From assembly GCF_900103485.1 (NCBI RefSeq), contig NZ_FNHW01000001.1, positions 2,439,057 to 2,503,056 of the forward strand: 64,000 bases of DNA, given 5' to 3'. A program made the position numbers and the translations under genes. The stretch's first letter is position 1; every line of letters starts with the position of its first letter. This stretch comes from Fictibacillus solisalsi. GTDB taxonomy: Bacteria; Bacillota; Bacilli; Bacillales; Fictibacillaceae. The notes beneath the pieces were generated by a model. That model saw only the letters and a list, made by a program, of their open reading frames with translations, was not told where the DNA came from and searched no databases. This document shows, one piece after another, positions 884 to 6,181 of the stretch.

Positions 884-1107
884 TGCATTCCTCCATTTTC
901 AGAAAATTCAATCCTTTATTAAAGAGTAGCAACGATATACTGAAAAAGCCATGGAACGAAGGTCCCGTTCTCATTCTAGTCCTTTCCTATCTTTTGGAAG
1001 CCCCCTGTCGGAAAATCTAGTAAGCTGTAATCATTACCAAACTTTTTTCCTCCCCACAAATCAATAAAGCACGACTATTGTACCTGTTTTTTTTTAACTT
1101 TCCATAC

Positions 1108-1113
1108 TATAAT
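1108..1113 (+). promoter_or_regulatory. Possible -10 element for the sigI-like gene
   Basis: A TATAAT hexamer lies about 50 bases upstream of the sigI-like start. The sequence 17 bases further upstream (TGTTTT) is a poor -35, so sigma-A recognition is uncertain. I see no clear copy of a SigI-type promoter. The rest of 884-1163 shows no gene. Confidence 0.35.
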
Positions 1114-1163
1114 CTGAGAGTTATTATTTTCTAAATATAGTACAGGAGAAATGGAGGGTGGTT

Positions 1164-1574
1164 ATGATCAGCTGGCTTAAACGGAGAAAAACGAATATCA
1201 AGACCCATTCATCACCTGACATTGCTTCCCGTTCTTCTGCTGCAGCTCATCTGCAAACGAAATCCATTTCACCAGATAAGGAAATCGAACATTACAAAAG
1301 CAGACTTTTGCAATTTGGCATTAAAGTTTACGAGATGCCAAAGTTAACTCCCCAATCGAAGAAAAGCAGACTCGATGCCTACACCATAGCCTCATACGTA
1401 GCAAACAATACAGAACTTAAATCTCTTTTTCTTACAAAAAAAGGTCTGCCTGCATCCCAGCTTTCAGAAAAATTTCCAAGCAAGTCCATTAAACGATACA
1501 CCCCTTATATTATTGCTGTTGCTCTCATTATTATTGAAGATTATGACTATCTTAAAGGCTATTTGCCGGAATAG
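1164..1574 (+). CDS. Stand-alone SigI C-terminal domain (no sigma-2 region)
   Basis: A 136-aa protein whose residues from about 38 to the end align by eye with the C-terminal domain of the stress sigma factor SigI: an EIEHYKSRL segment, FGI, LTPQSKKSR, LFLTKKGLP, then KRYTPYIIAVALII and DYDYLKGYL. SigI of B. subtilis is about 250 aa; the N-terminal half carrying the sigma-2 domain (core binding and -10 recognition) is absent here and upstream DNA holds no trace of it. The ATG at 1164 is preferred because GGAGGG at 1153-1158 is well spaced for it; the GTG at 1158 would overlap that site. The gene is followed 12 bases later by an RsgI-type anti-sigma gene, as sigI is by rsgI. It could be half of a split sigma factor, a decoy for RsgI, or a decayed sigma gene. 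Confidence 0.8.
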   Translation: MISWLKRRKTNIKTHSSPDIASRSSAAAHLQTKSISPDKEIEHYKSRLLQFGIKVYEMPKLTPQSKKSRLDAYTIASYVANNTELKSLFLTKKGLPASQLSEKFPSKSIKRYTPYIIAVALIIIEDYDYLKGYLPE

Positions 1575-1586
1575 GAGGCCCTTACG

Positions 1587-3374
1587 ATGACAAAAGGAAT
1601 TGTGGTAGAAGTCAAACGGCACCACATCATCGTTCTATCTGAGGGCGGTGTGTTTCGCAAGGTGAAGAACAATGGACAGCTTTACGCGGTAGGAAGTGAT
1701 ATTCTCCTGCCTAATGAACCGAACCGAAACTCAATGTTCAGCCTTCCCGTGTTTAACTGGAAATCTGCAAGCGTGTTTACCTTTGCCATCCTCTTATTAT
1801 TTTTCCAGCTCGCACCTAATACTGGTCAAGGGGTTTACGCTTATGTAGGCATAGAGATGAACCCAAGCATCGAATTGTCCATCGATGATGACATGAGGGT
1901 TCAGCAAATTACTGCCTATAATTCGGACGGTAAAAAACTAGTTGCACTACTGGAAAATTACCATGGGCAGCCTCTTGAGAAAGTGACTGAGGAAATTTTC
2001 AGGATCTGCCGTGCCAAAGGGTTTATTAAGCCCGATCAGGAAGTAATTGTTACCACTACTCTAACAAAGGACGTTAGTAAAGAAACACAGCAGAAAATTG
2101 AGCAGAAAATCAATTCCTTAATGGAACAAAAAGCGTTGGAAAACAAAATAGACATGACTTCATTGATCATTTCCAACAAAGAAAGAAAACGGGCCAAAAA
2201 AAGCGGCCTTACACCTGCGAAATATGCTATCCTCATGGCGGCAAAAGAAGCAGGAATACCCATTAAGCAGAACGATATCAAGAAAAAAAGCATTCAGGAA
2301 TTATCAGATAAAGTTGGACCAATCAGCGACCTGCTTTCCACTACACCTCTTGGAGAATATCAACATGTCTCTGTTTTTGTTCATAACGAACCTTCCCCGG
2401 ATGACAAAACAGAAACCTCCTCTATGGTTACTGCCGATCCAGTCCTTATTCTAAAGGATGACGAAGACGTGAAAAGCAGTGGGCCAACGGAGACTGCGGT
2501 TGTTCAAACCACTCCAGTAAAGATGGAAGCAGAAAGCAGCATGAATAAACCAGCATCTGCCGAATTCCCTGCTCAGGCACAATCCGGACAATCAGTATCC
2601 GGGAATAACAGCACCAAAAAAGCTATAACAGAGAATCAGCCGGTTTCTTCTCCCGTTTCTGAACCAGCTGCTGAGCCGGTAAAACAAAAGGCTCCGTCAG
2701 AGACACAGGCACCAGAAAGGAAAACAGACAAACCTTCATCGGCCTCTGCCAATGAAGAAGCAAAAGGACCTGCCACTGTCACACTTCCTAAGGAAAAGGA
2801 TCAAGAAGAAAAAACTGCTCCTGCCCCTGTTTCGGTTTCAAAAGAAGAAGGAAAACAGACAAGCCCGAAAGGCTATGAGGAAAGTAAGGGCTCAGATAGA
2901 CCCCAAGCACCAGCAGCATCTGCCAATGAAGAAGCAAAAGGGCCCGCCACTGTCACTCTTCCTAAGGAAAAGGATCAGGAAGAAAAAACCTCTCCTACTC
3001 CTGCTTCGGTTCCAAAAGAAAAAGCGAAACAGGCAAGCCCGGAAGGCAGTGAAGAAAGTAGGAATACGGATAAACCTAAACCCGCAGGGCAAGGCAGCGC
3101 AAAACAACCAGCAAACAGTGATGGTGTTGAGCGATCTCGGACAAATGAGCCGCAAGAAGAAAAGACTGATCCGGTCAGTGAAAAGAAAGGCACCACTCTT
3201 TCAGAGACATCAACGGATTCGGACTGTTCCGGGGTTATTCACAACGAACAAGAACCAGCCGAGGTTGACTCCGCCCCTGTTCGGGAAGGCTCCCTTCCAG
3301 ACACGGAACAGGAAAATGAACTGCCCTCAGAAGAAGTCAATACACCTGCACCCAATGTAGATGATGCAGCATAA
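1587..3374 (+). CDS. rsgI: RsgI-type transmembrane anti-sigma factor with long disordered tail
   Basis: A 595-aa membrane protein with RsgI architecture. Residues 1-45 form the cytoplasmic RsgI N domain (TKGIVVEVK...) that binds SigI. Residues about 60-76 are one membrane span. Residues about 84-230 are the conserved outer domain, including VYAYVGIEMNPSIEL, whose Asn-Pro (92-93) matches the place where RsgI proteins are reported to self-cleave. From about 250 to the end the chain is Pro/Lys/Glu/Ser-rich and looks disordered; in B. subtilis RsgI a disordered outer region is needed to sense cell-wall defects. Two 58-residue units repeat within it. AGGAGG precedes the ATG. It is most likely co-transcribed with the SigI-C gene and should control it or a full-length SigI elsewhere. 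Confidence 0.85.
   Translation: MTKGIVVEVKRHHIIVLSEGGVFRKVKNNGQLYAVGSDILLPNEPNRNSMFSLPVFNWKSASVFTFAILLLFFQLAPNTGQGVYAYVGIEMNPSIELSIDDDMRVQQITAYNSDGKKLVALLENYHGQPLEKVTEEIFRICRAKGFIKPDQEVIVTTTLTKDVSKETQQKIEQKINSLMEQKALENKIDMTSLIISNKERKRAKKSGLTPAKYAILMAAKEAGIPIKQNDIKKKSIQELSDKVGPISDLLSTTPLGEYQHVSVFVHNEPSPDDKTETSSMVTADPVLILKDDEDVKSSGPTETAVVQTTPVKMEAESSMNKPASAEFPAQAQSGQSVSGNNSTKKAITENQPVSSPVSEPAAEPVKQKAPSETQAPERKTDKPSSASANEEAKGPATVTLPKEKDQEEKTAPAPVSVSKEEGKQTSPKGYEESKGSDRPQAPAASANEEAKGPATVTLPKEKDQEEKTSPTPASVPKEKAKQASPEGSEESRNTDKPKPAGQGSAKQPANSDGVERSRTNEPQEEKTDPVSEKKGTTLSETSTDSDCSGVIHNEQEPAEVDSAPVREGSLPDTEQENELPSEEVNTPAPNVDDAA
2745..3092 (+). repeat. Two tandem 174-bp coding repeats in rsgI
   Basis: Two adjacent in-frame units start at 2745 and 2919, a period of 174 bp or 58 codons. 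Each begins SANEEAKGPATVTLPKEKD and is followed by a more diverged Pro/Lys/Ser stretch. The first about 70 bases are nearly identical, so the duplication is recent or kept homogeneous. Copy number could vary between strains and would change tail length. Confidence 0.85.
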
Positions 3375-3375
3375 A

Positions 3376-3414
3376 AAAATCCTGTCTGAACAACATGTTC
3401 AGCAGGATTTTTTA
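3376..3414. terminator. Bidirectional terminator between rsgI and cotH
   Basis: AATCCTG and CTGAACA pair with TGTTCAG and CAGGATT, flanked by A and T runs on both sides, serving the convergent rsgI and cotH genes. Confidence 0.85.
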
Positions 3415-4500
3415 TTGAAGGCGATGAAGCCGTTTTTTTAAATATTTATTTCTTTTCTTAACGAAGGCAAGAATGTATTCTGGCTCCTGATCGAATTTGG
3501 ACAGGGAGTAGTGCTTATACGGATCTTTAATGATATGAGGCCGTATGGACGCATAAAGTTTTTCAATTTTCCCTTCCATGGAGTCTATTGTGAGTGCTTC
3601 TTCAAGCAATTGTTCCATCACGCGTCTGTATTGTCTTCGATAATTCCCGTGAAGCAGCAGGCGTGCTGTCAACGTATTGTACCCTTCGATCGGTACATAC
3701 TTGTTCTCCATCACATCTCCGTGAATATCCCTTCCCCATGTGGCATCATAATCCCATGGCATGATTTCAAACTGGCCGGTCTTCCCATTTCTGTAAAGTG
3801 AATAGTTGTGAATAAACCCATCAAAATTTTGTGTACAGACCGCACCGCCAAGCCATCGAAAATAACTTTCCAGATTCAGCAGAGATTCAATTTTTGATGG
3901 AAATTCTTTATCCGTAGAAGTCAGCACGCAATTCAGCAGCTTTCTTAAGTGATGAAAAGAATGTTCGGGATCATACTTAATTTCATATCCTGATGTGACT
4001 GACCGTTTCGCTTTCCCGGTTGTAGGATTGTACTTTGAGAAATTGGCATTTTCTGAAATAGCATAATAGATACTGCCATCAGGGAGCCCTCTTTTTTTCA
4101 AAAATAGCTGGTCGACGGATTCCAATTGAAGATAAACACCTTGATATAAGCCATTGATGTACAATGTGACATGGTTTGCTTCCGGCGACAATACGCCAAT
4201 ATCGCGAAAAAAGTCCATGGACAGCTTATTCCTCATTAAGGAAGGATCATTGTACTCGGCATTCATATGAACCCTTTTAGCTCCTGTAAACATCCTCGAA
4301 GATGGAAAAACAAAATCATATGATTTTTTGGGAAACTTGCGGATGTGTGCTCCTCTGTATTTTACAGTGGTTTCATACGATTGATTTTCGGTTTTTAATG
4401 TACCTTTAACTGGTTGGCTGGCCCACCTTCCCTTTTCTATTGTCTTGGCCCCTTTAATGGGGACAGAGAGACGATACTCAGGCAACATACCTTTAGACAT
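3412..4500 (-). CDS. cotH: Spore coat protein kinase CotH
   Basis: A 362-aa protein, the same length as B. subtilis CotH, an atypical protein kinase in the forespore-surrounding mother cell that phosphorylates coat proteins CotB and CotG. The family's metal/ATP-binding signature is present: QNFDGFIHNYSLYRN (D227) and MPWDYDATWGRD (D250, D252). An N-terminal beta region (residues 1-130) contains KYRGAHIRKFPKKSYDF, also typical. An AGGAGAG site lies nine bases before the ATG. The gene is divergent from the CotG-like and CotB genes, its expected substrates, reproducing the cotB-cotH-cotG neighbourhood. Expression is presumably under late mother-cell sigma control; I could not identify a convincing sigma-K promoter. 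Confidence 0.92.
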   Translation of the reverse strand: MSKGMLPEYRLSVPIKGAKTIEKGRWASQPVKGTLKTENQSYETTVKYRGAHIRKFPKKSYDFVFPSSRMFTGAKRVHMNAEYNDPSLMRNKLSMDFFRDIGVLSPEANHVTLYINGLYQGVYLQLESVDQLFLKKRGLPDGSIYYAISENANFSKYNPTTGKAKRSVTSGYEIKYDPEHSFHHLRKLLNCVLTSTDKEFPSKIESLLNLESYFRWLGGAVCTQNFDGFIHNYSLYRNGKTGQFEIMPWDYDATWGRDIHGDVMENKYVPIEGYNTLTARLLLHGNYRRQYRRVMEQLLEEALTIDSMEGKIEKLYASIRPHIIKDPYKHYSLSKFDQEPEYILAFVKKRNKYLKKRLHRLQ

Positions 4501-4632
4501 GATTCTTCAATCTCTCCTTAGGTTGATACTTATCTCTATGTTAAAAGGAAGGTAAGCGCCACAAATCAATGCTAAAAAGGGCCTCCTTTCTGTGACGTTT
4601 ATCCAAGCAGAACGTAAAAACTTACGTACATT

Positions 4633-4671
4633 ATATGTGAAAAGAAATAATACTCCGTTCTTTTCACATAT
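4633..4671. promoter_or_regulatory. Perfect 14-bp inverted repeat upstream of cotG-like gene
   Basis: ATATGTGAAAAGAA at 4633-4646 is exactly mirrored by TTCTTTTCACATAT at 4658-4671 with an 11-base loop. It lies just upstream of the ribosome binding site of the CotG-like gene and about 130 bases from the cotH start. It has no T-run, so it is more likely an operator or 5' leader hairpin than a terminator. It also lies in the divergent promoter region. Confidence 0.7.
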
Positions 4672-4692
4672 TAGAGTATTGGAGGTCTACTC

Positions 4693-5067
4693 ATGAGCGT
4701 ATGGCATAATGATCCACGTGAAGAAAGCTCAAGCTCAAGCTCAAGTTCCTGCTCCAGCTCGAGCTCAAGTTCTAGTTCCTGCTCCTGCTCGAGCTCAAGC
4801 TCAAGAAGAAGCAGACGTTCCAGCAAGAGATCTGGAAAACGTTCCAGCAAAAGATCTAGCAAACGTTCCAGCAGAAGATCTGGAAAACGTTCTGGCAAAA
4901 GATCTGGAAAACGTTCTGGCAAACGTTCTGGTCGTTCCAGTCGCTCTGGACGTACTGGAAGAAGATCCAGCAGTTCCAGCAGTTCCAGCAGTTCAAGTTC
5001 GAGCTCAAGAAGAAGAAGAAGAAGAAGAAGAACCAGAAGAACACGCCACTCCCGCAGATCGAGCTAA
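4693..5067 (+). CDS. cotG: CotG-like Ser/Arg-repeat spore coat protein
   Basis: A 124-aa protein of almost only Ser, Arg, Lys, Gly and a few Cys. After MSVWHNDPREE come poly-Ser runs broken by single Cys (residues about 12-37), then a tract of RSGK/RSSK/RSGR units (about 38-90), a second poly-Ser run and a poly-Arg tail. This is the composition of CotG, the Ser/Arg/Lys-rich coat protein phosphorylated by CotH. GGAGG lies eight bases upstream of the ATG. An alternative overlapping frame starting at 4709 is also open but lacks a ribosome site. Assignment rests on composition and position next to cotH and cotB, not on alignable sequence. Cysteines could allow crosslinking. Confidence 0.75.
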   Translation: MSVWHNDPREESSSSSSSSCSSSSSSSSSCSCSSSSSRRSRRSSKRSGKRSSKRSSKRSSRRSGKRSGKRSGKRSGKRSGRSSRSGRTGRRSSSSSSSSSSSSSSRRRRRRRRTRRTRHSRRSS

Positions 5068-5089
5068 TCAGTTAATAGAGTACTCTTTT

Positions 5090-5119
5090 ACAGATAGAGC
5101 TCAAGCTCTATCTGTTTTT
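5090..5119 (+). terminator. Terminator after cotG-like gene
   Basis: ACAGATAGAGCT and AGCTCTATCTGT form a perfect stem with a very short loop, followed by TTTTT. Confidence 0.8.
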
Positions 5120-5248
5120 ATGTCGATTAGGCAAGCGTTGTTTTTCATGGAAAAAGGCGCTTGTACCAGCGCCGAACGATGGTTGTCTACATATATTTTT
5201 ACTATGCAACAACAAAATCGAATCTACGGTTCTGAAAGGAGAACATGA

Positions 5249-6181
5249 ATGTCTGATTTTCATATCAACTCAATGGTTGGCAAAAGGATTAATGTCAATA
5301 AAGGAGGTCCCGAAGCCAAAGCTGGACAACTGCTTCATTCAGGCTATAACTATATGGTTGTTGGAACGGATGAGGGAGTCGTCTATTATGCGGCACGTCA
5401 CTTAAAAAGTGTCGGAGAAGACCTTCAAAGCGACAACAACGGTGAGAAAAGTGGAACTGGGGAATTTTATGACTATCTTACACCGAGCTGTTTTTCCGCC
5501 ATTATGGACAACATGATTGGCCAAAATGTAAAGGTTAATCGCGGTGGCCCCGAATCCAGACAAGGAGTCCTTCTGTTAAGCACATATGATTATATTGCGC
5601 TAGCCACGGAGAAGGAAGGTGTCGTTTACTACAAGACCGATCATGTGAAAAGTGTAAGCGTTATTCAGGAACAGAAAGAAAACGAGGCAAATACGGATGA
5701 ATCTGAAAGTGGAAGCCGAACCGGACGCGGTTCTGGTCGGGGGACGGGACGTGGCACCGGCAGAAACGAAAGTCCAGTGAAGGGACGCGGTACCGGCAAA
5801 GGTACTCGTCGTGGTAGTAGTCGTGGTAGTAGTCGCGGTACCGGTAAAGGCACTGGTCACGGTACTGGCAAAGGTACTGGTCGCGGTACTGGCAAAGGCA
5901 CTGGTCGCGGTACTGGTGGATGCACCACTGAACGCATGACAGGCAGAACAACCGGCCATGGTCCAGCCGCTGCCGCAATGGATGTAACGTATTATCGGGA
6001 ATATGGGTTCAACAGTTTATTTGACCGTCTGGCAATGAGAAAGGTTAAAATCAACCGTGGAGGCCCGGATGCCATCGAGGGTGTCCTAACTGAATGTGCC
6101 AATGGCTATGTTGTAGTCCTTGCGGACAATGTAATTCACCGCATCCTGACTAAACATGTTAAAAGCATTAGTGCATTGTAA
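5249..6181 (+). CDS. cotB: Spore coat protein CotB with Gly-Thr-Gly-Arg/Lys repeats
   Basis: A 310-aa outer spore-coat protein. Three homologous domains of about 48 residues are visible: residues 8-57 (NVNKGGPEA...GVVYYAARHLKSV), 89-140 (KVNRGGPES...GVVYYKTDHVKSV) and 263-310 (KINRGGPDA...ILTKHVKSISAL). Between the second and third lies a repeat tract (about 155-230) of GTGR/GTGK units with some GSSR. In B. subtilis CotB the equivalent basic repeats are Ser-rich, C-terminal, and phosphorylated by CotH; here Thr replaces most Ser and the tract is internal. AAGGAG precedes the ATG at 5249; an ATG four bases earlier opens only a three-codon frame. A terminator follows. Confidence 0.88.
   Translation: MSDFHINSMVGKRINVNKGGPEAKAGQLLHSGYNYMVVGTDEGVVYYAARHLKSVGEDLQSDNNGEKSGTGEFYDYLTPSCFSAIMDNMIGQNVKVNRGGPESRQGVLLLSTYDYIALATEKEGVVYYKTDHVKSVSVIQEQKENEANTDESESGSRTGRGSGRGTGRGTGRNESPVKGRGTGKGTRRGSSRGSSRGTGKGTGHGTGKGTGRGTGKGTGRGTGGCTTERMTGRTTGHGPAAAAMDVTYYREYGFNSLFDRLAMRKVKINRGGPDAIEGVLTECANGYVVVLADNVIHRILTKHVKSISAL
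5740..5930 (+). repeat. Short tandem repeats coding GTGR/GTGK in cotB
   Basis: Units such as GGTACTGGCAAA and GGCACTGGTCGC recur in phase every 12 bases, encoding alternating Gly-Thr-Gly-Lys and Gly-Thr-Gly-Arg. Such arrays are prone to length change by slippage. Confidence 0.8.

What the first reader, a model, noticed from the sequence alone, without database searches (positions are those of the whole stretch)
1164..3374. Half a sigma factor: stand-alone SigI C-terminal domain paired with an RsgI sensor
The 136-aa protein matches only the C-terminal half of SigI, with no sigma-2 domain and no upstream remnant, yet it keeps the canonical position before an apparently intact RsgI. Ribosome site, frame and domain are intact, so this is not obvious decay. 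It could be one half of a two-part sigma factor (B. subtilis SigO/RsoA shows that split sigmas exist), a decoy that titrates RsgI from a full SigI, or a DNA-binding adaptor. With a cell-wall-sensing RsgI it would be a new type of envelope stress circuit.
Basis: partly seen in the sequence, partly recalled or inferred. Interest (0 to 1): 0.8.

Follow-up and report, generated by a model that had tools for sequence, protein, structure and literature searches.

The report
Stand-alone half of a sigma factor
A bacterial gene for only the tail half of a transcription-starting protein (sigma factor SigI), paired with its membrane sensor, is kept and selected across the genus Fictibacillus but has lost key residues that read DNA, so it probably works by gripping partner proteins rather than by starting transcription.

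Summary
Window 1164-1574 encodes a 136-aa protein matching only the SigI C-terminal domain, directly before an rsgI with RsgI_N and RsgI_M domains (1587-3374). It is not strain-specific decay: a short SigI-C gene followed by rsgI is present in 25 of 25 sampled Fictibacillus genomes, with the same neighbours in the 6 genomes compared, dN/dS 0.10-0.31 and no sigma-2 remnant found. A full SigI lies elsewhere in 24 of 25; in G015 it looks broken.

The split-sigma idea is disfavoured. Residues that touch -35 DNA in solved SigI structures are lost in 22 of 22 aligned halves (H171, S213, R214, E218), and two of five genomes checked show no sigma-2-only frame. AlphaFold packs the half with the RsgI N-domain (pTM 0.71 and 0.69).

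Best explanation: a RsgI-binding SigI mimic (0.5). Function is untested.

The parts
1164..1574 (+). stand-alone SigI C-terminal domain gene (136 aa): conserved start motif (MI.W or MIRRW), about 30 residues predicted disordered, then the SigIC domain
1587..3374 (+). rsgI (595 aa): RsgI_N (residues 1-37), one hydrophobic membrane-type segment (by eye, about residues 60-77), RsgI_M (84-215), repetitive Pro/Glu/Lys-rich tail (by eye)
1071..1135 (+). conserved region before the gene: GACT, T-tract, TATAAT-type -10 (TACTATAAT in 10 of 11 aligned sequences), then GTTATTATTTTCT; promoter role inferred
1572..1586 (+). TAG stop and 12-base gap; half and rsgI are in the same frame here (used for the read-through fold)

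Best explanation
The gene encodes a SigI mimic: the SigI C-terminal domain without the sigma-2 domain and without key residues that read the -35 element. It lies directly before its own rsgI, most likely in one operon. The RsgI N-domain most likely holds it at the membrane through the surface that RsgI uses on full SigI. When RsgI is broken down, the freed mimic most likely acts by competing for proteins that bind the SigI C-domain, above all RsgI copies that hold the full SigI (anti-anti-sigma, as PhyR does to NepR). Shown: domain, gene order, conservation, selection, loss of DNA-contact residues, no sigma-2-only frame in two of five genomes. Predicted only: docking on RsgI-N. Inferred: one transcript, release, and competition with full SigI.
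For: Half + rsgI in 25 of 25 Fictibacillus genomes, same neighbours in the 6 genomes compared, no short form in the 9 other genomes of the family. A second RsgI appears with it: 2 RsgI_M copies in 24 of 25 Fictibacillus, 1 copy in 9 of 9 others. dN/dS 0.10-0.31 over 10 pairs. H171, S213, R214 and E218 lost in 22 of 22 aligned halves and present in 29 of 29 full SigI; H171S in SigI6 abolishes activity (PMC10575876, section 7 read). At >=90% retention 0 of 9 conserved DNA-contact positions but 13 of 22 other conserved positions are kept (Fisher p 0.004). AlphaFold of half + RsgI-N read through the stop: pTM 0.71; replicate with another species as query 0.69; top fold match 6ivu_B, SigI1C of the SigI1C-RsgI1N complex, E 5e-5. 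RsgI binds SigIC and competes with the RNAP flap-tip helix (PMC10575876, section 9 read). The genomes in which a stand-alone SigI-C was found also hold a second SigI match, of full length in most and broken in G015.
Against: No binding or expression data. Conserved non-contact positions look mostly like core residues that any folded domain would keep, and positions and sequences are not independent, so the test shows fold kept and DNA contacts lost, not RsgI binding kept. The RsgI-binding surface overlaps the RNAP flap surface, so sequence cannot separate the two targets. The stop was read through with a short linker, which may favour docking; the interface could not be inspected; in the replicate the helix-turn-helix region falls to pLDDT 65. 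The half sits with its own RsgI, not the RsgI of the full SigI; cross-binding is assumed. In G015 the full SigI looks broken while the half is intact, which does not suit a role purely on SigI unless it is a sequencing error.
Confidence: 0.5

Rival explanations
1. RNAP flap binder: freed from RsgI, the half binds the beta flap tip without reading a promoter and changes the activity or sigma occupancy of RNA polymerase.
For: RsgI and the flap-tip helix use the same SigIC surface (PMC10575876, section 9 read). Fold and many conserved positions kept.
Against: No direct evidence for flap binding; the flap interface is smaller than the RsgI interface in the solved pair (same section).
Confidence: 0.18
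2. DNA-binding regulator with changed specificity: the helix-turn-helix has been rebuilt (E218 to K, other bases) to read other sites.
For: Contact positions keep net charge +3 to +6; E218 is K in most members of three lineages.
Against: 1-2 residues deleted in the HTH turn of the 22 aligned Fictibacillus halves and a proline just before Y223 in 6 of them; first HTH helix only 4 residues long in one model and not assigned in the other; no single replacement at H171.
Confidence: 0.15
3. One half of a two-part sigma factor (as SigO/RsoA) that joins a sigma-2-only protein.
For: Half-sigma architecture; split sigma factors exist (SigO-RsoA in a table of PMC10141391, passage read). G001 has three short sigma-2 frames above cut-off (74, 84, 98 aa) that were not examined.
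Against: Four -35 contact residues lost in 22 of 22. No sigma-2-only frame by PF04542 in G003 or G024; in the window's genome the two short frames above cut-off look like a SigK N-half beside a masked stretch and a sigma gene whose region 4 lies in an overlapping frame.
Confidence: 0.07
4. Slow decay of a duplicated sigI, kept by hitch-hiking with rsgI.
For: Faster evolution than full SigI (dN/dS 0.10-0.31 against 0.02-0.05).
Against: Open frames with start codons in 24 loci; purifying selection; conserved upstream region; a frameshifted sigI looks different (G006).
Confidence: 0.05

Closest known systems
SigI-RsgI (sigma-I / anti-sigma-I) pairs
   Same: C-terminal domain fold, gene order, RsgI_N and RsgI_M domains
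   Different: no sigma-2 domain; minor-groove His and several major-groove residues lost; a full SigI-RsgI pair lies elsewhere in the genome
PhyR (sigma-factor mimic that binds the anti-sigma NepR)
   Same: works alike under the best explanation: a sigma-derived domain without sigma function that binds an anti-sigma
   Different: PhyR has an ECF-like domain with sigma2- and sigma4-like parts and a receiver domain (PMC4598750, passages read); this is one SigI C-domain with a membrane RsgI; no sequence kinship was tested
SigO-RsoA two-part sigma factor of B. subtilis
   Same: sigma parts carried on separate short proteins (PMC10141391 table, passage read)
   Different: no shared sigma-2-only partner seen and four -35 contact residues lost here; partnered with an anti-sigma

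Membership tests
SigI sigma factor | sigma-2 domain reading the -10 element | tested here: not met
SigI sigma factor | SigIC domain | tested here: met
   NCBIfam C-terminal matches, PDB 6ivu_B, fold match
SigI sigma factor | A-tract-binding His (H171) and conserved -35 contacts | tested here: not met
   H171, S213, R214, E218 absent in 22 of 22 aligned halves; R219 kept in most
SigI-RsgI operon | rsgI directly downstream with RsgI_N and RsgI_M | tested here: met
SigI-RsgI operon | RsgI periplasmic autocleavage (Asn-Pro as the site is recalled, not from a call) | tested here: inconclusive
   NP in the window and 4 of 5 same-genus named loci, DA in F. macauensis, DP in the 11 g2 loci read; cleavage itself not testable
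two-part sigma factor (SigO/RsoA type) | conserved sigma-2-only partner protein | tested here: not met
   PF04542 in 5 genomes; G003 and G024 have no short frame
sigma-factor mimic (PhyR type) | sigma-derived domain that binds an anti-sigma | tested here: inconclusive
   AlphaFold docking on RsgI-N only
sigma-factor mimic (PhyR type) | loss of promoter-reading function | tested here: inconclusive
   contact residues lost; activity not measured
sigma-factor mimic (PhyR type) | frees a sigma factor on a signal | not testable with these tools
   needs reporter assays

The most novel reading that the evidence does not exclude
Stand-alone SigI C-domains are a recurrent protein class of this bacterial order that arose more than once by loss of sigma-2 and converged on the same dismantled DNA-reading surface (H171 lost, E218 to K). 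They act as sigma mimics on RsgI. In Fictibacillus a second RsgI sensor stores the mimic and releases it to free the full SigI, a two-sensor anti-anti-sigma relay.
Probability: 0.25. Interest if true: 0.8.

Novelty: new variant of a known kind. Interest (0 to 1): 0.62.

Why it matters
If right, the SigI-RsgI sensing pathway has a protein-level input that no paper found in the searches made here describes, and a sigma-mimic logic that I know from alphaproteobacterial PhyR would have a second form built from another sigma domain. It also warns that naming proteins 'SigI' from C-domain matches can label proteins that are not sigma factors.

Tried and rejected
Sigma-2 remnant or sequencing error upstream: searched in all frames, not found. 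Strain-specific truncation: rejected by 25 of 25 genomes. Sigma-2-only partner: not shared by the five genomes checked; three short frames of G001 were not examined. Phage or defence origin: no PADLOC match for three halves, no PHROG match for the window half and one orphan half, one weak unnamed PHROG (E 3e-4) for another orphan. SigI-type promoter before the half: only a TATAAT-type -10 was seen, by eye. PDB match for RsgI-N by sequence: repeat-type or weak chance-like matches only. One common origin of all stand-alone halves: the free tree sets them apart, but one clade is not rejected (28 halves of three lineages plus L161, p-AU 0.062; for the first two lineages 0.21; long branches), so the number of origins is open. 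In a tree of 22 halves and 30 full-type domains the Fictibacillus halves lie apart from the full SigI of the same genomes (94/92). For the four halves of lineage HC the contact-loss test is not significant (p 0.25). The half + rsgI of G105 (L161) keeps H171 and E218 and occurs in 1 of 3 genomes held for its family. G162, G310, G387 and G405 show extra matches whose places were not listed; not followed up. Literature: searches gave no paper on stand-alone SigI C-domain proteins; I saw listings with starts of abstracts, sections of PMC10575876 and PMC12203970, and passages of PMC10141391, PMC6056542 and PMC4598750. A 2019 SigI-RsgI structure paper, looked up by a recalled DOI, is not held.

Full report
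What is there. Window 1164-1574 encodes 136 aa that match only the C-terminal part of SigI models and the SigIC domain of solved structures. It is followed after 12 bases by rsgI (1587-3374; RsgI_N and RsgI_M). The same genome holds a full SigI-RsgI pair about 80 kb away.

Conservation. The genome is placed in Fictibacillus by its nearest named relatives (16 loci, all titled Fictibacillus). A protein search of the 34 genomes held for the family found a short SigI-C frame in 25 of 25 genomes of genera g1 (7) and g2 (18), and only full-length matches in the 9 genomes of g3 and g4. Named loci of both g1 and g2 are Fictibacillus species. An RsgI follows directly in 24 loci read and in G007. Neighbours were compared in 6 of the 25 genomes (window's own, G001, G003, G007, G009, G017): all share an ion channel with TrkA-N domain, a YugN-family gene and phosphoglucose isomerase on the rsgI side. 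RsgI_M is found twice in 24 of 25 Fictibacillus genomes (G003 once) and once in each of the 9 others. NG86 dN/dS is 0.10-0.31 for the half (10 pairs), 0.06-0.12 for rsgI residues 1-215 (10 pairs) and 0.02-0.05 for full SigI (5 pairs): selected, but more loosely than full SigI. The region before the gene is conserved between g1 and g2, with TACTATAAT in 10 of 11 sequences.

Not decay. No sigma-2 sequence was found around the halves, while the same profile finds a frameshifted SigI in G006. That broken copy, also short in one frame (145 aa), is left out of all counts of halves.

What was lost. Li et al. 2023 (PMC10575876; abstract, introduction, three results sections and discussion read) list the SigI6 residues that touch the -35 element. 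Against 29 full SigI, the 22 halves of A1 lose H171, S213, R214 and E218 in 22 of 22 and have 1-2 residues deleted in the HTH turn. Conserved contact positions are kept (in at least 90% of halves) in 0 of 9 cases against 13 of 22 other positions (p 0.004); at 50% the split is 3 of 9 against 17 of 22 (p 0.04). In a second set (11 Fictibacillus halves with G007; 25 full SigI) the numbers at 90% are 1 of 10 and 14 of 24 (p 0.02); for 13 halves of family f21, 0 of 10 and 13 of 24 (p 0.005); for 4 halves of f2/f20, 2 of 10 and 11 of 24 (p 0.25). Because the other conserved positions look mostly like core residues, this shows a kept fold and a changed reading surface, no more.

Partner. By PF04542 the window's genome has two frames under 174 aa above cut-off: a fragment that looks like a SigK N-half beside a masked stretch, and a sigma gene whose region 4 lies in an overlapping frame (both readings by eye). 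G003 and G024 carry the half but no short sigma-2 frame (shortest 180 and 174 aa); G001 has three short frames and G009 one below cut-off, none examined further. So a sigma-2-only partner shared by all halves is not seen. AlphaFold of half and RsgI-N in one chain gives blocks of mean pLDDT 90-97 for residues 41-130 and 85-93 for the RsgI part up to residue 180, with pTM 0.71; with F. nanhaiensis as query pTM is 0.69 and the HTH block falls to 65. The first 31 residues are disordered; the conserved start motif is unexplained.

Elsewhere. Of 397 genomes of the order searched with the half profile, 15 outside Fictibacillus were listed with two or more matches. Rechecked, 9 of these 15 have a second match in a frame of 115-187 aa, 4 have two full-length matches and 2 have a broken one. 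With a mixed profile of stand-alone forms more appeared. Genus g24 of family f21: all 14 g24 genomes in the listed rows show two matches; 13 loci were read, each with a 111-116 aa protein and no rsgI within about 2 kb, near a HAD hydrolase and an RsbRD/STAS-type gene (families tested on one example each); dN/dS 0.05-0.17 over eight pairs, though the ribosome site looks weak by eye in 11 of 13. Families f2 and f20: orphan proteins of 119-124 aa in four genomes. Family f31: G105 has a half of 165-176 aa with rsgI that keeps H171. Tallies: H171 is kept in 25 of 25 full SigI, 0 of 11 Fictibacillus, 0 of 13 f21, 0 of 4 f2/f20 and 1 of 1 f31; E218 is K in 9 of 11, 13 of 13, 3 of 4 and 0 of 1. The genomes with these proteins also hold a second SigI match, full length in most; in G015 it looks broken. 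The free tree sets the lineages apart, but one origin is not rejected (p-AU 0.062).

Reading. The data speak for a domain kept for protein contacts and released from SigI-type promoter reading. Because RsgI binds this domain and shares its surface with the RNAP flap (PMC10575876), a RsgI-binding mimic is the simplest role, and PhyR is the closest logic (PMC4598750, passages read). Whether the mimic frees the full SigI, acts on RNAP, or has new DNA sites is not decided. The RsgI signalling steps (autocleavage, RseP, ClpXP) are taken from PMC12203970 (abstract and introduction read) for C. thermocellum and were not tested here.

Noticed in passing
window 1587-3374 and half-linked RsgIs (L085-L100, L161): The Asn-Pro motif of the RsgI middle domain is NP in the window and four same-genus loci, DP in the 11 g2 loci read, DA in F. 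macauensis and NF in L161, so autocleavage may be relaxed in half-linked RsgIs.
   Followed up: partly
L128 (G006:C12:36000-43000); G015:C11:462618-462967: G006 carries a third sigI copy, frameshifted, in a region with a transposase-like gene (by eye); G015 has a full SigI that looks broken beside an intact half.
   Followed up: partly
L026 (G000:C4:1921500-1924500): A sigma-2 fragment that looks like the N-half of SigK lies beside a stretch withheld as N, reminiscent of the skin-type split of sigK (recalled).
   Followed up: no
L117 (G000:C4:3413307-3413504): A sigma gene with region 2 in one frame and region 4 in an overlapping frame (129 and 72 aa); a 190-aa frame in G001 may be its relative.
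   Followed up: no
window 3412-6181: A CotH kinase gene (Pfam E 9e-86) beside low-complexity Ser/Lys/Arg-rich ORFs (cotG/cotB-like by eye) sits between rsgI and the ion channel in the window and in G001, but not in the F. macauensis locus or the three g2 loci read.
   Followed up: partly
L162, L202 and other f21 loci: The orphan SigI-C gene of f21 lies tail to tail with an RsbRD/STAS-type gene, a possible link to the stressosome pathway.
   Followed up: no
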